Of a stretch of DNA of 11,174 nt, positions 487-10,720 are shown in pieces. The stretch is from contig DNBZ01000148.1 in assembly GCA_003484585.1 (NCBI GenBank), positions 1 to 11,174 on the forward strand, given 5' to 3'. Position 1 is the stretch's first letter, and every line of letters begins with the position of its first letter. The position numbers were made by a program, and so were the translations under genes. Source of the stretch: Bacteroidota bacterium (lineage in GTDB: Bacteria; Bacteroidota; Bacteroidia; NS11-12g; UBA9320). The notes beneath the pieces were generated by a model. That model ran no database searches and was not told where the DNA came from. It worked only from the letters and a program-made list of their open reading frames with translations.

Positions 487-737
487 TATAAAATAATTTT
501 GTCGTTGTTTTCTTGTAATATAAAATCTCCATTTTCTAGTAATAAGTATGAATCACCGTTTGGTGGCGGTTCAACTGGAGCTTCAGAAGGAGTTCCTGTT
601 ATGCTTCCTATTCCCTGTGCCTGCAAACTTCCGTCACAGCACTTAGACGAATATGTTCGCCCATCAGCACATAAGCAGCCTCTTCTACCGCCCTTTCTAC
701 TAGTTCTGCTGTATGTATACCTTCTTCTGCTTTTCAT
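486..737 (-). CDS. Small Arg/Cys-rich probable virion protein (83 aa)
   Basis: An 83-residue protein with three parts. The basic N-terminus has 7 Arg and 2 Lys in the first 20 residues. The Cys-rich core has Cys21, Cys23, Cys33 and Cys34 (GCLCADGRTYSSKCCDGSLQAQGIG in two pieces, 20-33 and 34-44). After a Pro-rich linker (49-60), the C-terminal hydrophobic/acidic tail YLLLENGDFILQENNDKIIL (64-83) contains two similar strands, LLLENGD and ILQENND. The CLC-CC and SLQAQGIG motifs recur in flavobacterial phages, as I recall, with no assigned function. It sits between the head protease and the 157-aa gene with TAATG overlaps on both sides. It could be a small head decoration or connector protein. 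The four Cys could bind zinc or form disulfides, but the spacing is not a standard zinc finger. Confidence 0.62.
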   Translation of the reverse strand: MKSRRRYTYSRTSRKGGRRGCLCADGRTYSSKCCDGSLQAQGIGSITGTPSEAPVEPPPNGDSYLLLENGDFILQENNDKIIL

Positions 738-1651
738 TACTTATCTAGTGAGTTAATTTTAGATTCAGACCAGCTTAAAGCTGATTTTCCACCCCACGCA
801 TCGTACATTAGTTTGCCGCACCCGTCAGAATAGCCTTTAGAAGCCTTTAGATCGCCTTTATGGCGTGAAAGGTAGCTATACATCCTTTTTATGGTAGACA
901 CGCTTATAGCCTCTCTATTGGCTAACTGGGATGCTCTACGTTTCCCTACAGCAGTTCCGCAGCTTCCCCAGCCATTCTCTTCAGCCCATTCTAAGGCTCT
1001 CTTAGCGTTGTTTGATACAGAGTCTGGATAATCGCTGTATGAGGCTAGGTTAAGAATCTTAGATTCTAGTGCGTCAGAAATCTCCTCTAACAATGAGATA
1101 GCTTCTGGGCTGTTTAGCTCATCATCCTGACTCATCTCAACTCGGTCAGTAAAGTAGCCCTCAATAGAGAATCCAGATACCCGACCTGTTTTAACGTAAT
1201 CTTCCCATACCTCATCATTGTTAACTTTCATAGAAACCATCCACGTACCTACTGGTAAATTCATTCCGTACTTTCTGGACTTATCGTGCGTTTCATCTTC
1301 TATAATCCAAGACTCTACTACAGATAATCCGTGAAGGTCTGCCTGATGTTCTAAGGTAGATTTGTTTTGGTTACCTCGCATTAAGAATAGTTCTGACGCC
1401 TGACGGACAGTATCGTCCGAGAAGAAGATGTAATACTCTTCATCCTCATTTTGGCGATAGATATTCTTATTTGGAATCAAAGCTGCACCCATAAGTATTC
1501 GCTTCTCTTCGTCAACCTTAGCTAACTCTACCTTATCTTCTTTAGATAAAGCAATAAAGTGTTCTTCGATTGCTGGGCGATCAACTATACTTATAGCCTC
1601 TATTCCTGAAAGCATTGCTTCCTCATCGATAATTAATTCTATTATTCTCAT
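737..1651 (-). CDS. XkdF-type prohead serine protease with extra C-terminal domain (304 aa)
   Basis: A putative capsid maturation protease that would cleave scaffold and capsid N-termini inside the prohead. Residues about 50-170 match the XkdF pattern: MGAALIPNKNIYR (54-66), YYIFFSDDTVRQASELFL (73-90), TLEHQADL with His102, VVESWIIEDE (111-120), LPVGTWMVSMKV (132-143) and RVSGFSIEGYF with Ser162. His102 and Ser162 are the likely catalytic pair, by analogy with HK97-fold proteases. An acidic linker (174-197) leads to a separate domain (about 204-300): DYPDSVSNNAKRALEWAEEN, VGKRRASQLANREAIS, TIKRMYSYLSRH, DGCGKLMYDAWGG and LSWSESKI. I have seen this domain attached to phage head proteins, but its function is not known to me. 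The gene follows the tape measure with an ATGA overlap, an unusual place for a head protease, and ends in a TAATG overlap. Confidence 0.78.
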   Translation of the reverse strand: MRIIELIIDEEAMLSGIEAISIVDRPAIEEHFIALSKEDKVELAKVDEEKRILMGAALIPNKNIYRQNEDEEYYIFFSDDTVRQASELFLMRGNQNKSTLEHQADLHGLSVVESWIIEDETHDKSRKYGMNLPVGTWMVSMKVNNDEVWEDYVKTGRVSGFSIEGYFTDRVEMSQDDELNSPEAISLLEEISDALESKILNLASYSDYPDSVSNNAKRALEWAEENGWGSCGTAVGKRRASQLANREAISVSTIKRMYSYLSRHKGDLKASKGYSDGCGKLMYDAWGGKSALSWSESKINSLDK

Positions 1652-3864
1652 ATTCCTGCTGTATTTATTAGATTTCTATCAAACTCCTGTTGGTTGGTAA
1701 CGTCTTTACCTACAACGTATGCTTTTATTGGTTCGTTTGTTTGTCCTGCTACTGTTTGCGCCAACTGATCCACGGAAGATGTACCAACAACATTGAAGTC
1801 TGGTGCTTGTACTGGTGCGCTCGATGCACCTCCGCCTGAAGCTGATGGTTTTCTAAACGAAGCTATTGTAGTGGCTAAAATGTTAGCTATAGATATACCT
1901 GCACTTATATTATTTCTCAATCTAAGCGGAGTCGTAACAGGTATGGTTGCTCCTAACGATGCTGTATCTTGTGCTATAGTTACTGCGTTAGCAGACTGGG
2001 TCTTAATTACAATATCAGCAATTGCAGCCCCCTTCTCCACAATTAGTGCTGCTTTTTGCATAGCCTCATTCTCTCCTGCCAAAGTACCCATAAGTTGAGA
2101 TATGCCCTTTGCAAATCCAACGTACTCCATATTAATCGTTTGCTTAGCCTTTATAGATGAAATCTCCTTATTGAGATTCAGGTCTATCTGCTGATTCTGC
2201 AATTCGAATGACTGTTTCCTTAAGTCAGCAACCTCTAAGTCTGAAAGTTTTAGCGCATCTGCATTGGCTATTTGAGCGTCTACATTATCTTTATCTTTAC
2301 CTACCTGTTCTATTTTCTTATCGAAATATTCTTCATTAGCACCTATAGAAAACTTAAGACGATCTATTTCTGTATTCTCTATTGATCTCTCAATTTTAGC
2401 TATAGCCTGCGCCTCTTTATCTTTAGCTAGAATACGCTTAGTTATGATACCATCTTCTATAGATAGAATAGCTTCACCGTGCTTAATCTTAGCATCTTCT
2501 ATAGAATTTTGATAATCTAGCTCTGCGTTAGCTATAAGTTTTCCTGCATTTTTAGCCCCCTTTACCCTTTCCTTGTACTCCTCTAGTCTCTTTGCCTGCT
2601 GCTCCTTAAAGTTCGATAATTTAGTGTCCGCCTCTCTTTTAGCATATTCTTCCTCCAAATCTAACTTCTCATCTAAAGTTCTTACATTTATCCTATCAGC
2701 TTCTTTATTATATTTATCTACTATATTTTGTATATTAAACAACCCTTCTTCAAATTCTCTAAATACTTTACTTCTCTTGCTTCCGTTTTTCTTATCGTCA
2801 GTATCGAAATTAACAATTAGTGCTAACTTTTCATATAGCTTATCAATTATCTCTTGACTATCACCTATACCTTCAGCTCTTTGTTCATCAGCGGATGCTA
2901 TGGCTTCTATAGCTGCTGCTTGGGTATTACCAAAATTAGTAATCAAAGCTGTTGTCGTTTCCCACCAACCTAAAATTTCGTCAGCATCAGCGTTCTCTAG
3001 CTTCAGTTGCTTAACTCTCTCTTCCTCTATTGCTGAAATTAATGCCGAAGTTTCTGCCTGAACCTTCAATACAGCTATTCTAGCATTAATCTGCTTTACA
3101 CTATCCGCAGTAAGTTTATTTTGTTCATCTAACTGTAGGTTTAAGTCCTCATTATCTTTTTTGACTTCCTTTAGAATCATCGCTCTTTGCTCTTGCGTGA
3201 CGTTATCATCTTCTAGCAACCTAGCTAATGTCTCCAATTTACCTATTTGCGCACCGTATACGTCAGTAGCTTCCGAAAGTGCCTTTTTCAAAGCTCTCAT
3301 AGCAGCACTAATTCCTCCTAAAGTCTTTATAAAGTTGATAAATTCCTTTGACTGCAACAACCCTATCAGTATCTGAACAGCTAGAAGCACGCCACCAATT
3401 CCCATTAGTGATTTCTTCAGTTCCCCAAAGGCAGTAGTTATACTCCCTGTTGTCTGTACAAAACTACCTCCTAAAGATACTAGTTGGGATAAGTTATTCG
3501 CTATAGCCGTAAATCCATATGAAGCATCAGATGCAAGTCGACCAGTCTCCATTAATATGGCATTATTCAGTCCAGATTGAGTCCTGAATTGCTTTGTGGC
3601 TGAACCTGCTCCTTTGGTAGACATTTCATATACAGCAGCAATCTTACCTGCGTTCTGCATTTCGTAGTTCAGCTTCTTCTGCTGTGCAGCAGCTAATTTT
3701 TGCTCACCCCTTAATGATGCCTGCTCAAATTTATTTTTATTGCTTTGCTTCGCTAGTACTCCGAATGATTTACTAAGGTCATCAGTACCCTTTTTTAGAT
3801 CGTTAACCCTAGCCTTAGCCTCGCCAGACTCAACATTTATGCTAATTAATATTTCTTGCGCCAT
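1648..3864 (-). CDS. Tape measure protein (738 aa)
   Basis: The protein sets tail length and is threaded through the tail tube. It is mostly helical and rich in Lys, Glu, Ala and Gln. The N-terminal region (1-110) is polar and helical. A hydrophobic segment MGIGGVLLAVQILIGLLQS (about 154-172) follows, then a long coiled-coil-like region (about 200-575, with LDLEEEYAKREADTKLSNFK at 401-420), then a second hydrophobic stretch (about 604-668) typical of tape measures that can interact with the host membrane. A Ser/Gly/Ala/Pro linker (672-686) precedes a C-terminal segment, APDFNVVGTSSVDQLAQTVA (687-706) and IKAYVVGKDVTNQQEFDR (713-730), a signature I associate with Bacteroidota phage tape measures. 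At about 0.15 nm per residue the tail would be roughly 110 nm. The start at 3864 overlaps the 52-aa gene by 23 bp, and its TGA overlaps the next ATG (ATGA). Confidence 0.85.
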   Translation of the reverse strand: MAQEILISINVESGEAKARVNDLKKGTDDLSKSFGVLAKQSNKNKFEQASLRGEQKLAAAQQKKLNYEMQNAGKIAAVYEMSTKGAGSATKQFRTQSGLNNAILMETGRLASDASYGFTAIANNLSQLVSLGGSFVQTTGSITTAFGELKKSLMGIGGVLLAVQILIGLLQSKEFINFIKTLGGISAAMRALKKALSEATDVYGAQIGKLETLARLLEDDNVTQEQRAMILKEVKKDNEDLNLQLDEQNKLTADSVKQINARIAVLKVQAETSALISAIEEERVKQLKLENADADEILGWWETTTALITNFGNTQAAAIEAIASADEQRAEGIGDSQEIIDKLYEKLALIVNFDTDDKKNGSKRSKVFREFEEGLFNIQNIVDKYNKEADRINVRTLDEKLDLEEEYAKREADTKLSNFKEQQAKRLEEYKERVKGAKNAGKLIANAELDYQNSIEDAKIKHGEAILSIEDGIITKRILAKDKEAQAIAKIERSIENTEIDRLKFSIGANEEYFDKKIEQVGKDKDNVDAQIANADALKLSDLEVADLRKQSFELQNQQIDLNLNKEISSIKAKQTINMEYVGFAKGISQLMGTLAGENEAMQKAALIVEKGAAIADIVIKTQSANAVTIAQDTASLGATIPVTTPLRLRNNISAGISIANILATTIASFRKPSASGGGASSAPVQAPDFNVVGTSSVDQLAQTVAGQTNEPIKAYVVGKDVTNQQEFDRNLINTAGI

Positions 3865-7411: not shown

Positions 7412-8704
7412 TTAATTTTCATTATATATTGAGATATTCTGATCGTCATCAGTAGCATCTAAGGAAAATTCTCTGTCATTTAAGATATTACCAAATCGAT
7501 CAAAGCTCTTTATTTTAAGAGATGATCTTACTAAATGGTTAATTTCTAGTGTAGTAGGCCCCTCATCAGTACCCTTGAAGTTTATATTAAACGTTTGGCT
7601 TGAATCAAAACCGCTATAGTATATACGCTCACCAAGACCGTCTAATAACATTCCCTCCTGATTTAACCTCGATACAAGTTGTACGTTTACCTGTCCTACT
7701 GGTATATTTCTGTATGTAGCGAATGCCTCGTCGTTGGTTCTGGTTGCATCTGTTACTGTTTCTATTCTGTGTCTCGAAATCCATATTTTATAAGCACCAT
7801 TAAATTGATTACTGTCACCTATCCTTTGCTTAAACTCTATAGTGTTTGTATATCGATTTAAGTCACTCGAAGGTCTATATACTACGGTATGTCTCGCATC
7901 ATCCCAATTTACTAAGTCAATAGAATTTAAGTGCTTCGCATAATCCTTAACTACAGGCTCTAATGCTGGTGTATAATTACCGAAAACAAAACTTTTATAT
8001 TCCGATCTATCTGGGAATGTTAGCCAATCAGCATCTTGTCCGTTAAATTTGTTTGTAACGCTAGAAAGATGCTCGTCAGGTATAGTGCCTCTACCAATAG
8101 TCATAATAAATACACTATGCTGTCCACTATCTTCCGCTAAAGAAACAACTGCATTAGGACAATCTACAGCAAAGTTTACACTAGCTAAGTGTATTATAGG
8201 ATGAAATATTTCCAACACCACAGTTTCTCCGTATGTATCTATATCCGACTGTGTGGAGGTGTATGTTATTGTTTGGTCGTTTCCATCTGGATTGGTTGCT
8301 ATTGTTGTAGATGAAGGTGTTGGCGTTCCTACTGAATTTAACCAAACGGTATCGCTGTTTATCCATCCAGCCATAAACGTATAATCAGCTGGCATATTTC
8401 CTTTAATTCCTATCTTAGCATAGAAAGGAACTGTAATTCCAGTAAAATCTATATTATAATCACCAATTTGTTTTCCTACCGTTGAAATCTCATATCTATA
8501 TATTCCAGTCTGAACACCTATATTTCTAGTGTCTCCACAACTAATTGTAGTAGTTGTAACTGTTGGCTCTGTTGGTTCTTCAAACGGTTCTTCTCCACCT
8601 CCTGTATCATCGCTTTCAACTCCGCCATCAGAAACAGGCTTAGTCACATTTACGAAGTATGGACTTCTTACATTTATTTTTCTTAACTCTTCTTCTGACG
8701 CCAT
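7412..8704 (-). CDS. Virion structural protein, tail-associated, unknown role (430 aa)
   Basis: A protein of 430 residues, starting at the TAATG junction. Its N-terminus (EELRKINVRSPYFVNV, 5-20) is a motif I associate with flavobacterial phage structural proteins. An acidic Pro/Thr/Gly linker follows (about 22-53), then a beta-rich domain bounded by Cys57 and Cys182 and containing YRYEISTVGKQIGDYNIDF (69-87), resembling an Ig-like or carbohydrate-binding sandwich. A central region carries WLTFPDRSEYKSFVF, and the C-terminus is a further beta-rich segment (SLKIKSFDRFGNIL, 395-408). There are no membrane segments or signal peptide. The linker plus a compact beta domain suits a surface-exposed tail, tip or fibre-attached protein. 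A major tail protein is less likely at this size but not excluded. It is separated from the next gene by only 11 bp. Confidence 0.55.
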   Translation of the reverse strand: MASEEELRKINVRSPYFVNVTKPVSDGGVESDDTGGGEEPFEEPTEPTVTTTTISCGDTRNIGVQTGIYRYEISTVGKQIGDYNIDFTGITVPFYAKIGIKGNMPADYTFMAGWINSDTVWLNSVGTPTPSSTTIATNPDGNDQTITYTSTQSDIDTYGETVVLEIFHPIIHLASVNFAVDCPNAVVSLAEDSGQHSVFIMTIGRGTIPDEHLSSVTNKFNGQDADWLTFPDRSEYKSFVFGNYTPALEPVVKDYAKHLNSIDLVNWDDARHTVVYRPSSDLNRYTNTIEFKQRIGDSNQFNGAYKIWISRHRIETVTDATRTNDEAFATYRNIPVGQVNVQLVSRLNQEGMLLDGLGERIYYSGFDSSQTFNINFKGTDEGPTTLEINHLVRSSLKIKSFDRFGNILNDREFSLDATDDDQNISIYNEN

Positions 8705-9273
8705 TATACGAATTTTATTGTTTTACCTTTGAGGTCAAAGCCTGCCTCCTTTAGAATATCCTCCACAGACTCTTTTACATCCTCCACTACAGGAGCAACT
8801 ACCTTTAGGTTTTTTAACTGTTCCTTTACGATTCTGTTTATGAATCCTGTTGGGCGAACTCCCTGATTTGCTATCTTTCGCTGAATTAACCTTGCTAGAT
8901 TCTGTACCTTTGGAGTGCTGGTGCTTAGACCCTCCAGACTTTGTACTCCCCGAACTGACTTGTAGTTTACTGGCTTGCTTACTATCCATTGAGCTAATTC
9001 ATTTACATTTACTGTTTTTGGTTGATTCTGTTCGTTTAACCCTATTTCCTCTAAATAATCTATACCAACAATGTCGATACCTAGTCCTGTTTCTGTTTGA
9101 CTAGATAGCGTCCACTTAATACTATCTCTAGCAGCACCAGTATTGGTGATTCTAGGGTTAGCATACCCTTGTCTATCTGGTTGCGGTGTGTCCATCTCTC
9201 TTTTGAGTAATGAAACTAGCTTATCAGAATAGCTCTTTAGGTATGCGTTAGTATTTTTAGTTTTTATGGACAT
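8704..9273 (-). CDS. HK97-gp10-like head-tail connector/tail completion protein (189 aa)
   Basis: The protein has a basic N-terminal helix (AYLKSYSDKLVSLLKREMD, 10-28), then TNTGAARDSIKWTL (43-56) and IDYLEEIGLN (71-80). These resemble the 'tG.l..Si' and 'vdYa.y.E.G' signatures of the HK97 gp10 family of head-tail joining proteins. A linker follows (PVNYKSVRGVQSLEGLSTST), then a helical region LARLIQRKIANQGVRPTGFI (126-145) and an acidic C-terminal helix. Gp10-like proteins sit at the head-tail interface and are usually next to the tail terminator gene, which fits here. The start at 9273 overlaps the preceding gene by 10 bp, and the stop shares a base with the next ATG (TAATG). Function is inferred from motif resemblance and position. 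Confidence 0.55.
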   Translation of the reverse strand: MSIKTKNTNAYLKSYSDKLVSLLKREMDTPQPDRQGYANPRITNTGAARDSIKWTLSSQTETGLGIDIVGIDYLEEIGLNEQNQPKTVNVNELAQWIVSKPVNYKSVRGVQSLEGLSTSTPKVQNLARLIQRKIANQGVRPTGFINRIVKEQLKNLKVVAPVVEDVKESVEDILKEAGFDLKGKTIKFV

Positions 9274-9755
9274 TGGCTTCCGTCTGCATTAATTAACGCC
9301 ATATCATTATTTGGCATATTAATATTAACTGTCATAGACCATCCTGTTACTTTGTTTTCGAATCTATCTTCGAATAATTGTGCTGTAGGGTTGCCGTCTA
9401 TCTCGTAGTTAGCATCATACATACCGCCTCTACGTAAAGAAGATTGGATACCGTTTATAACATTCAGTAGTGAATTGTGAATATCGTGAGTATTGTCTAA
9501 GCCTAGGTGTGGGTTATCTTTAGATAATTTATCATCTTTTTCATCATCAACAATATCCATAACAATTATATTCAAAGATACGGTCATAATGTATTCCTGA
9601 AATGTAATCGAAGATATGCCAACGTGGGCTAACGGAAATATTGTCTGCTTTGACAAATCCACCTCTAATAGATCGCCAAAAGTAACTGTATTGATCAAAC
9701 TGCTGCCATCTAAGTAGGCGAATAGCTTATCGATTAAGTTGTAGTATGTTTTCAT
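9264..9755 (-). CDS. Probable tail terminator / tail completion protein (163 aa)
   Basis: The protein is 163 residues long, starting at the ATG of the ATGA overlap with the frameshifted chaperone frame. The order is an N-terminal helix (YYNLIDKLFAYL, 4-15), a strand segment (IFPLAHVGISSITFQEYIMTVSLNIIVMD, in pieces over 39-67), an acidic loop (DIVDDEKDDKLSKD), a helix with HNSLLNVINGIQSSLRR (93-109), and a C-terminal GWSMTVNINMP (138-148). Length, helix-strand-helix layout and the closing 'GW...i..P' strand resemble tail terminators (gpU-like) that cap the tail tube at the head end. This is a fold-level impression, not a sequence match. It overlaps the next gene by 10 bp. A neck or minor tail protein is the main alternative. 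Confidence 0.5.
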   Translation of the reverse strand: MKTYYNLIDKLFAYLDGSSLINTVTFGDLLEVDLSKQTIFPLAHVGISSITFQEYIMTVSLNIIVMDIVDDEKDDKLSKDNPHLGLDNTHDIHNSLLNVINGIQSSLRRGGMYDANYEIDGNPTAQLFEDRFENKVTGWSMTVNINMPNNDMALINADGSQCP

Positions 9756-10518
9756 TGTTTATATTGTTTTCGTATCATTTTAGCTTCTAGTTCATTCTTC
9801 TCCTTCTCAAACGTTAGGAATGTTAGGCATTGGTGGAGTGAGACTTTCGTAACTTCATCAAATCTTCTGACATCTCCTTTAGCAAGCGCATAGACACTTT
9901 GATACCATCCCCACTTTTTTCCAAAGCCATCCTCACTTGAGATGTTAGTTCCTCTTTCTGAAGAGTCTTCTCCATAAAGTTCAGGGTAGTCGCTGACAAC
10001 TCGATCCCTAAATGATAAAAAAAAAGCGTACAACTCATCACAACACTTAACGGCATTTCTTTCATCAACTCGTTTATTTCATCACTAGGGTCATATGGAG
10101 CAATAGTGTATCTTTCGCCCTTCCTAAAATTGACTGGACGGTATAGTACAGCCATAGCTTTATGCATATCATCCCAGTTTCCGAAGTAATTCTCTATATC
10201 GATATACTCACCTAAAGACATATCATCTAGTTTAGGAATGAATCCCATATCAACATCCAACAGTTTGAAGTGGCGAATAAGATCATAATCCTTCTCAAAA
10301 GCCATTTTAAGCACTCCTAAGAGACTTTCTATGTCTCGGTAAGGTATCTTATCCACTAGGTCGTATTCGATGCCGCAAAACGCCTCTATGAGCTTCTTGT
10401 TGATAAACTCTGCATCCTTTACCTCATCTTTACCCTTTATTGCGCCCAAATAATATTGGTACTGCCCTAAGGATATCTCATCTAAGCTGTCTGGTACGAT
10501 TAACTTTACTTCTTCCAT
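9752..10518 (-). CDS. Tail assembly chaperone, -1 frameshift product (GT-like, 255 aa)
   Basis: This is the long form made if ribosomes slip -1 at the T-run. Codons from the ATG at 10518 are read to Phe167 (10018), then 88 codons in the -1 frame to the TGA at 9752. In the lambda G/GT system such pairs bind the tape measure and recruit tail-tube subunits before leaving the assembled tail. The shifted segment is protein-like: an acidic stretch (YPELYGEDSSE), then FGKKWGWYQSVYALAKGD and a charged helix with FEKEKNELEAKM. The KWGWY...LAxGD pattern resembles the C-terminal segment of phage tail chaperones, by recollection only. No usable start exists for this segment (only a TTG at 10033), so translation needs frameshifting. 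Its TGA overlaps the ATG of the next gene (ATGA, 9755-9752), which suggests coupling. A homopolymer error at the nine-base run could also join the frames, but would leave the stem-loop and the intact unshifted frame unexplained. Confidence 0.72.
9823..10518 (-). CDS. Tail assembly chaperone, unshifted product (G-like, 231 aa)
   Basis: This is the conventional reading of the chaperone gene, ATG 10518 to TAA 9823. The first 167 residues are shared with the 255-aa form and the last 64 are unique. It has no signal peptide or membrane segment and is mostly helical and acidic, as expected for a cytoplasmic assembly factor. Two similar motifs lie 85 residues apart, LDEISLGQY (12-20) and LDDMSLGEY (97-105), hinting at an internal duplication. 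The unique tail (YHLGIELS...HSTNA) has alternating hydrophobic and charged residues typical of amphipathic helices and overlaps the -1 frame for 195 nt. No Shine-Dalgarno sequence precedes the ATG. A 15-codon in-frame minicistron ends with a TAG directly abutting this ATG. The chaperone role is inferred from the frameshift, the position among tail genes and the character of the shifted segment. Confidence 0.75.
   Translation of the reverse strand: MEEVKLIVPDSLDEISLGQYQYYLGAIKGKDEVKDAEFINKKLIEAFCGIEYDLVDKIPYRDIESLLGVLKMAFEKDYDLIRHFKLLDVDMGFIPKLDDMSLGEYIDIENYFGNWDDMHKAMAVLYRPVNFRKGERYTIAPYDPSDEINELMKEMPLSVVMSCTLFFYHLGIELSATTLNFMEKTLQKEELTSQVRMALEKSGDGIKVSMRLLKEMSEDLMKLRKSHSTNA
9980..10012 (-). 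promoter_or_regulatory. Frameshift-stimulating stem-loop, possible pseudoknot
   Basis: In the mRNA, UUUAGGG (10012-10006) pairs with CCCUGAA (9986-9980): seven base pairs with one U-G wobble and a 19-nt loop. It begins 5 nt after the slippery heptamer, within the usual 5-9 nt spacer for -1 frameshift signals. A small inner hairpin GUC-AGC-GAC is possible in the loop. Alternatively loop bases GAGUU (10002-9998) can pair with GACUC (9967-9963), four Watson-Crick pairs plus one wobble, giving an H-type pseudoknot. The pairing was worked out by hand and no folding energy was computed. Confidence 0.6.
10018..10024 (-). other. Slippery heptamer T_TTT_TTT for -1 frameshifting
   Basis: Nine consecutive T residues (10025-10017, minus strand) are read in frame 0 as CTT TTT TTT TAT (Leu165-Phe-Phe-Tyr168). 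The heptamer T TTT TTT at 10024-10018 fits the X-XXY-YYZ rule, so both P-site and A-site tRNAs can re-pair fully one base back. After the slip the next codon is TTA at 10018. The heptamer is at the right phase and precedes a stem-loop by 5 nt. Confidence 0.75.
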
Positions 10519-10589
10519 CTAAGTATTAACTGGTTTTAAGGTTTGTGTACTGAAGGTAACTTCCATCTGTAGTATATGCACCTCTATAC

Positions 10590-10672
10590 ATACTGTATAC
10601 ATACATAAAGTATTTATACATACTATATACATTAGTGTATATATACTGTATACTTGTATACTGTATGTATAC
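10590..10672. repeat. Array of GTATAC / ATACTGTATAC motifs
   Basis: On the plus strand ATACTGTATAC occurs exactly at 10590-10600 and 10643-10653. A 10-of-11 copy (ATACTGTATG) begins at 10658 and runs into another GTATAC at 10667-10672. The core GTATAC is self-palindromic and recurs four times. Copies are irregularly spaced (53 and 15 bp between starts), which suits several operator sites better than a tandem repeat or CRISPR. Low-complexity TA expansion is the main alternative. Confidence 0.45.
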
Positions 10673-10720
10673 TATATAAAAACTCTTAGTTATATTATAT
10701 ATACTATTATATATATATGT

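What the first reader, a model, noticed from the sequence alone, without database searches (positions are those of the whole stretch)
9980..10025. Canonical -1 programmed frameshift signal in the tail chaperone locus
Seen directly: nine T residues carry T_TTT_TTT in the correct phase (10024-10018), a 5-nt spacer, and a 7-bp stem-loop (10012-10006 with 9986-9980), with an optional pseudoknot to 9967-9963. The -1 frame is open for 88 codons after the slip and has no usable start of its own. Tail assembly chaperones commonly use frameshifting (lambda G/GT), and this locus precedes the other tail genes. Known G/GT signals use other heptamers such as GGGAAAG, so a pure T-run with an adjacent stem in a Bacteroidota phage would add a distinct recoding element.
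Basis: partly seen in the sequence, partly recalled or inferred. Interest (0 to 1): 0.78.

Follow-up and report, generated by a model that had tools for sequence, protein, structure and literature searches.

The report
Conserved -1 recoding in phage tail gene

Summary
T_TTT_TTT in phase (10024-10018), the 88-codon -1 frame and the 255-aa product check out. Of 399 sequences examined, 395 hold both halves of the gene, all 395 in the -1 relation; 394 carry in-phase T_TTT_TTT and one (L383) has no T run but A_AAT_TTT one codon upstream. Remote homologues in bacterial genomes keep exactly nine T's, in another codon phase, at 30 of 30 loci. The stem shows no covariation and no excess stability.

It stays open for 50 codons or more in 68 of 70 clusters against 3.4 expected (132 of 138 in the larger set) and is itself conserved. 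The products share 167 residues and swap C-termini (64 or 88 aa).

Best reading: ribosomal -1 frameshifting in a tail-assembly-chaperone-like gene (0.55). RNA polymerase slippage on T9 is a live rival (0.33). T-run sites without a hairpin are known in P2-like phages. New variant of a known kind.

The parts
10017..10025 (-). T9 run; in-phase slippery heptamer T_TTT_TTT at 10024-10018
   Evidence: heptamer in phase in 394 of 395 sequences incl. the window
10018..10518 (-). shared N-terminal part, 167 aa, of both products (PHROG 32199, function unknown)
   Evidence: AlphaFold2 model of the 231-aa protein, mean pLDDT 86
9823..10017 (-). 0-frame C-terminal tail, 64 aa, and stop
   Evidence: open and conserved far beyond synonymous randomisation in relatives
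9752..10018 (-). -1 frame C-terminal domain, 88 aa (FR..YPEL..GKKWGWY), and stop
   Evidence: in -1 relation in 395 of 395
9264..9755 (-). next gene (163 aa, PHROG 30964, unknown), ATGA overlap with the -1 stop; its homologue follows in 14 of 15 relatives printed
8704..9273 (-). 189-aa tail-module gene, unknown
1648..3864 (-). 738-aa protein, taken here for the tape measure protein (inference from sequence by eye; PHROG hits of unknown function)

Best explanation
The gene makes two proteins by a -1 recoding event at an in-phase homopolymeric slippery site. Most translation stays in frame and yields a 231-aa protein. A minority shifts -1 at T_TTT_TTT (two Phe tRNAs re-pair one base back) and yields a 255-aa protein with the same first 167 residues and another C-terminus carrying the conserved W-G-W-Y domain. 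By analogy with lambda G/GT the long form would link tape measure and tail tube during assembly. Shown: conserved -1 relation, conserved heptamer, protein-level selection on both frames after the site. Inferred: that the ribosome is what slips (0.55), which form is the major one, and the chaperone role. Recoding of some kind: about 0.95.
For: -1 relation in 395 of 395 sequences that hold both halves (of 399; in the other 4 the contig ends before the second half), heptamer in 394. L383 keeps the -1 arrangement without a T run (longest homopolymer 4) and has A_AAT_TTT one codon upstream of the usual place, the only in-phase X_XXY_YYZ in the stretch scanned; background 106 per 16,942 codons. L263 has only eight T's. 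A_AAU_UUU belongs to a class (R_RR.U_UU.Y) named as shift-prone in E. coli (PMC4066793, sections 16-17). The codon before the two Phe codons ends in T in 138 of 138 clusters, although GTT is 38% of Val and TTT 79% of Phe codons in these phages. Dual coding: 0-frame open >=50 codons in 68 of 70 clusters vs mean 3.4, max 8 in simulation; -1 frame open across the 0-frame tail in 67 of 68 vs 0.3, max 3; 0-frame identity 0.344 vs 0.249 +- 0.005 in 30 clusters. Remote homologues: 30 of 30 loci keep both domains in -1 relation, T9 and a 69-85 codon 0-frame tail. First gene after terminase in P12024L and conserved order with following genes.
Against: No protein or RNA evidence. U_UUU_UUU is reported as much less shift-prone than A_AAA_AAG in E. 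coli (PMC5009743, passages), and no stimulator was found. The run is 9 or 10 in 278 of 279 distinct junctions and exactly 9 at 30 of 30 remote loci, more than a heptamer needs. A T-to-C change at the last heptamer base would be silent in both frames before TTA/TTG, yet none is seen (126 clusters have TTA/TTG, about 9 changes expected: my arithmetic, ignoring kinship). L383 is one contig; of its 23 protein relatives without FF at the site, 10 have N-F, which could be A_AAT_TTT, and 13 have S-F, A-F or D-F, which cannot fit X_XXY; their DNA is not held. Nine in-frame fused proteins exist.
Confidence: 0.55

Rival explanations
1. Transcriptional slippage: RNA polymerase slips on the T9 template and makes mRNAs with 10 (or 7) U's, which ordinary ribosomes read into the -1 frame.
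For: Run of 9 or 10 in 278 of 279 distinct junctions and exactly 9 at 30 of 30 remote loci, in a different codon phase. Baranov 2005 (PMC1088944, sections 5 and 8 read) takes a run of 9 A's or T's whose length is conserved in all homologues as very likely purposeful transcriptional slippage. In 653 phage ORFs long runs are rarer than codon shuffling predicts whatever the phase (T8 with in-phase heptamer 5 vs 12.8, without 0 vs 4.1; A8 in phase 18 vs 48; A9 or longer 6 vs 43.6), and T7 without the in-phase heptamer is rarer (12 vs 25.3) than T7 with it (26 vs 33.3). No stem.
Against: L383 has no run and L263 only eight T's, yet both keep the -1 arrangement. The two flanking T's also follow from the encoded residues (V/L before; L/F after in -1), so nine need not be selected as a length. 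In 108 ORFs sampled from the window's own genome T runs are not avoided (T7 in phase 9 vs 7.4, T8 in phase 4 vs 1.8, T9 1 vs 1.6), only A9 is (0 vs 6.2) (low power).
Confidence: 0.33
2. The -1 ORF is a separate gene with its own start.
For: A TTG begins 9 nt before the heptamer in the window; P12024L/S records annotate the -1 part as a separate ORF.
Against: 47 of 70 clusters have no ATG/GTG/TTG in the -1 frame near the junction, 1 of 70 an ATG; the conserved -1 protein begins right at the heptamer; it does not explain the fixed T's.
Confidence: 0.03
3. Sequencing or assembly error, or a decayed gene.
For: Homopolymers are error-prone; nine fused proteins exist in the protein database.
Against: The same phase in 395 of 395 sequences from many assemblies, in two cultured phage genomes and at 30 loci of bacterial genomes; both frames under selection.
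Confidence: 0.01
4. Frameshifting stimulated by the stem-loop / pseudoknot named by the first reader.
For: Seven pairs can form in the window; arm complementarity is above that of partners slid by codons and cells paired (62.5%) exceed the slid versions (27.8-48.3%, control b).
Against: Mean z of 93 clusters 0.03, control windows -0.29 to -0.01; covariation 0.144 observed and 0.144 shuffled, cells paired 62.5% vs 63.1% shuffled (control a); no consensus structure in 54 sequences. The complementarity is that of fixed codons.
Confidence: 0.06

Closest known systems
Phage P2 E / E+E' (and P2-like phages KS5, KS14, KL3, Smp131)
   Same: -1 frameshift on a T-run (TTTTTTG; T7G, T7C in relatives), no downstream hairpin reported, tail module, shared N-terminus with different C-termini (PMC3091744, PMC3931495, passages)
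   Different: P2: 91 and 142 aa, E' reaches 37 nt back into E; here 231 and 255 aa, 0-frame runs 64 codons past the site in the window and 50 or more in 132 of 138 clusters, with both frames selected; no similarity to P2 proteins was tested directly
Phage lambda G / GT
   Same: -1 frameshift giving two tail assembly proteins with a common N-terminus (PMC5009743, passages)
   Different: heptamer GGGAAAG there (from the finding and recall); shift near the 3' end of G, so GT extends G; here the C-terminus is swapped
Bacterial T9/A9 transcriptional slippage (e.g. Shigella mxiE, IS elements, Thermus dnaX)
   Same: conserved run of nine (PMC1088944, PMC5009743)
   Different: not tested at RNA level here; one lineage (L383) keeps the arrangement without a run
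Nonlabens phages P12024S / P12024L (Inhavirus)
   Same: homologous gene, T9 in phase, -1 domain
   Different: annotated as two hypothetical proteins (gp40/gp41 in P12024L, gp38/gp39 in P12024S); 0-frame tail only 25 codons

Membership tests
Programmed -1 frameshift gene | downstream ORF in -1 relation, conserved across homologues, without own start | tested here: met
   395 of 395; no start in 47 of 70 clusters
Programmed -1 ribosomal frameshift | in-phase X_XXY_YYZ heptamer at the junction | tested here: met
   394 T_TTT_TTT and 1 A_AAT_TTT (one codon upstream) of 395; 13 of 23 proteins related to the exception could not fit it, no DNA held
Programmed -1 ribosomal frameshift | downstream stimulatory structure (not always present in phage tail genes) | tested here: not met
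Programmed -1 ribosomal frameshift | transframe protein made from unaltered mRNA | not testable with these tools
   no proteomic or RNA data
Transcriptional slippage gene | homopolymer of 9 or more conserved in all homologues | tested here: not met
   278 of 279 distinct junctions, but L263 has 8 and L383 (outside that count) none
Transcriptional slippage gene | mRNAs of differing run length | not testable with these tools
   no RNA reads
Tail assembly chaperone (lambda G/GT, HK97, P2 E/E+E') | lies between major tail protein and tape measure genes | tested here: inconclusive
   directly after terminase in P12024L; tape-measure-like gene several ORFs downstream; major tail protein not identified
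Tail assembly chaperone (lambda G/GT, HK97, P2 E/E+E') | sequence or fold relation to a known chaperone | tested here: inconclusive
lambda G/GT type | 0-frame ends soon after the slip so the long form contains nearly all of the short one | tested here: not met
   0-frame tail of 50 codons or more in 132 of 138 clusters; 25 codons in P12024L/S

The most novel reading that the evidence does not exclude
The T9 run is decoded, wholly or partly, by RNA polymerase slippage, which would to my knowledge be the first tail-chaperone-like gene to use it. The gene is a long dual-coding module in which two alternative C-termini are both selected. Some Bacteroidia carry the gene in their chromosomes, perhaps as part of a scattered, domesticated phage-tail gene set, and keep the nine T's exactly.
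Probability: 0.2. Interest if true: 0.82.

Novelty: new variant of a known kind. Interest (0 to 1): 0.6.

Why it matters
A recoding site in a large family (3,286 proteins matched the 0-frame profile among 7,993 candidates scored) is unannotated in the records looked at: P12024L/S list the two parts as separate hypothetical proteins, so half of the long protein is missing. The dual-coding overlap with two selected C-termini departs from the lambda G/GT scheme. An almost fixed T9 beside one lineage without a run is a natural test case for telling ribosomal from polymerase slippage. Copies in bacterial genomes that keep the site suggest that both products are used outside ordinary phages too.

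Tried and rejected
Stem-loop as stimulator: rejected as a family element. Above-control complementarity of the arms (control b) was first read as a hint, but the pair counts show no covariation beyond shuffles and the arms are fixed codons.

Prompt stop in the +1 frame as evidence for polymerase slippage: within 3 codons in 69 of 70 clusters against 46.7 expected, max 56. The two coding frames (0-frame L-G, -1 F-R) can force it, so it was not used.

Position table: its 124 clusters were chosen for T9 in the main phase, so its invariant T's are circular and are not used as evidence.

Known-family searches: 0-frame protein PHROG 32199 (unknown), the -1 part of 5 of 69 relatives PHROG 38404 (unknown), none for the window's own. 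Pfam on 67 relatives gave only scattered hits in 1-2 members, best E 0.002; NCBIfam none for either part; Rfam none at gathering threshold in the window; PDB by sequence best E 0.04 and 0.6. Foldseek against PDB: no match at E 0.001 for the 0-frame model or the -1 domain; VIA-align none for the latter. BFVD gave 36 matches at E 0.001 or better, none with a function name. Promoter and terminator scan at chance level. No tRNA.

Genome contigs with A1 found no relative; A7 found three contigs of Winogradskyella and Flavobacterium MAGs, all T9. Own genus, family and order: only the window's genome. Remote protein against the phage collection: no match. Homology of the window's 163-aa gene to the 181-aa gene of L459 was not shown by BLASTP.

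Rows dropped before counts: one search left out L058 (the window's own copy), L219 and the host stretches L220-L239. Several loci are the same contig fetched twice; 279 distinct junctions and 138 clusters are the fair counts. L383 is outside the clusters. The pair count used 54 of the 93 clusters at 70% identity. One search found 31 places; 30 came with loci and were examined.

Searches put it one codon upstream, and 13 of 23 related proteins do not fit the heptamer, so I lowered it to 0.55 and raised the polymerase to 0.33.

Papers: passages of PMC10885494, PMC5009743, PMC3711429, PMC3091744, PMC3931495; sections 5 and 8 of PMC1088944; abstract, outline, sections 16-17 and passages of PMC4066793; the rest from search listings. 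Whether this site is in print was searched only.

Full report
What is there. On the minus strand of the window a 231-aa ORF (10518-9823) holds nine T's at 10025-10017, read cTT TTT TTT TAT, so T_TTT_TTT is in phase at 10024-10018. After a -1 shift the frame is open for 88 codons and stops at 9754-9752, overlapping the ATG of the next gene by four bases. The product would be 167 + 88 = 255 aa.

Conservation. Scans of IMG/VR with the protein and with alignments of its two parts, plus Nonlabens phages P12024L/S, gave 399 sequences with the window. 395 hold both parts, and in all 395 the second part is in the -1 frame; in the other four the contig ends before it. The search patterns lie in the two parts, not in the T run, so they do not select for it. 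394 carry T_TTT_TTT in phase. Among 279 distinct junctions the run is 9 in 259, 10 in 19 and 8 in one (L263); at 80% identity there are 138 clusters. Protein identity to the window falls to about 30%. The codon before the two Phe codons ends in T in 138 of 138 clusters, although GTT is only 38% of Val and TTT 79% of Phe codons in these phages.

The exception. L383 has no run. It reads ATA AAT TTT ATG, which holds the canonical heptamer A_AAT_TTT, by alignment one codon upstream of the usual place, and the only in-phase X_XXY_YYZ in the stretch scanned; its longest homopolymer there is four. Its 0-frame tail and its -1 domain are both open. A_AAU_UUU is in a class named as shift-prone in E. coli. 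Of 249 related proteins examined, 223 have FF at the junction; 23 close to L383 have instead N (10), S (8), A (4) or D (1) before F; P0122 lacks one F; two are gapped there. The S, A and D members cannot fit X_XXY, so the signal of that clade is not settled. What stands is that one lineage keeps the -1 arrangement without any run. This is the main reason why I prefer the ribosome to the polymerase, and it is one DNA sequence.

Dual coding. In lambda the shift lies near the end of G. Here the 0-frame runs on for 64 codons in the window and for 50 or more in 132 of 138 clusters; P12024L/S have 25. With -1 codons replaced at random by synonyms, 3.4 of 70 clusters stay open that long (max 8); 68 do. 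In the reverse test 67 of 68 stay open against 0.3 (max 3). The 0-frame tail is also more alike between 30 lineages than the -1 protein explains (0.344 against 0.249 +- 0.005), while the stretch after the 0-frame stop is near its control (0.288 against 0.268 +- 0.011). So both C-termini are under selection, and the event swaps one for the other rather than adding a domain.

Remote homologues. A profile search of 395 genomes of the window's class found, besides the window's own, L425 (T9, main phase) and a distant copy, L426, next to an ORF that looks like lipoyl synthase by eye. In that genome's family 28 of 101 genomes have a match, two of them single-contig genomes. All 30 loci examined have both domains in -1 relation, exactly nine T's, and a 0-frame tail of 69-85 codons; the run sits in another codon phase, [GCT/GGT/AGT/AAT] TTT TTT TT[G/A], which also gives a second heptamer T_TTT_TT[G/A], P2-like in the G form. 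Profiles of the two phage parts match all 30 (34-61 bits).

Stem. The window's stem is matched by 16 of 200 shuffles. Across 93 clusters the junction window has mean z 0.03, control windows -0.29 to -0.01. In 54 aligned sequences the named pairs show no covariation beyond shuffles (0.144 and 0.144; cells paired 62.5% and 63.1%), though they pair more than slid versions (27.8-48.3%), and no consensus structure is predicted. The arms coincide with codons for FR and YPE of the -1 protein.

Ribosome or polymerase. For polymerase: a run of nine or ten nearly everywhere, in two codon phases; published criteria and precedents; avoidance of runs of eight or more in the phages' other genes whatever the phase, with little avoidance of the in-phase T7; no last-base C although it would be silent in both frames before TTA/TTG. 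For the ribosome: L383 and L263; the fixed heptamer; the known P2-like sites TTTTTTG, T7G, T7C; no avoidance of T runs in a sample of the window's own genome; and the fact that neighbouring codons alone can give nine T's. I put 0.55 on the ribosome, 0.33 on the polymerase, the rest on a mixture or neither.

Counter-evidence kept. Nine proteins, of 21 candidates in one search, have the two parts in one frame, eight of them fused at the junction itself. No DNA is held for them; they may be true variants, run-length errors or gene-caller jumps. No transcript or peptide has been seen.

Noticed in passing
L426-L459 (genomes of the family of G454), e.g. L459:8934-15627, L457:2807-5745, L458:8747-9442: The same recoded gene sits in bacterial genomes among ordinary genes (TonB-type receptors, SusD, lumazine synthase; an ABC-type ATPase by eye). 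In L459 two further ORFs shared with 9 and 7 of the loci, and a large ORF, stand 3 kb away with other genes between; in L457 a 697-aa ORF with a weak tape-measure PHROG match (E 7e-4) lies just upstream; in L456 a recombinase lies upstream. This could be a scattered, domesticated phage-tail gene set (gene-transfer-agent- or tailocin-like) or prophage remnants.
   Followed up: partly
L383:1501-2291 and proteins P0130-P0137, P0139-P0152, P0162: A sister clade with N/S/A/D-F instead of FF at the junction, so without a T9 run there; only L383 has DNA here (A_AAT_TTT).
   Followed up: partly
window 10585-10717: AT-rich stretch upstream of the gene full of GTATAC-type direct and inverted repeats (36-nt arms, 83% complementary); an 85-aa ORF reads through it and is found in five near relatives.
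   Followed up: no
window 737-1651: XkdF-type protease domain (PF14550, E 3e-15) with an extra C-terminal part (PHROG 2859) lies downstream of the tape-measure-like gene.
   Followed up: no
P0121-P0129: Nine database proteins with the two parts in one frame; their DNA would show whether the run is 10 T's or the gene caller jumped frame.
   Followed up: partly
phage ORFs of the fetched loci: Runs of nine or more A's are strongly avoided in the phages' coding sequence (6 seen, 43.6 expected).
   Followed up: no
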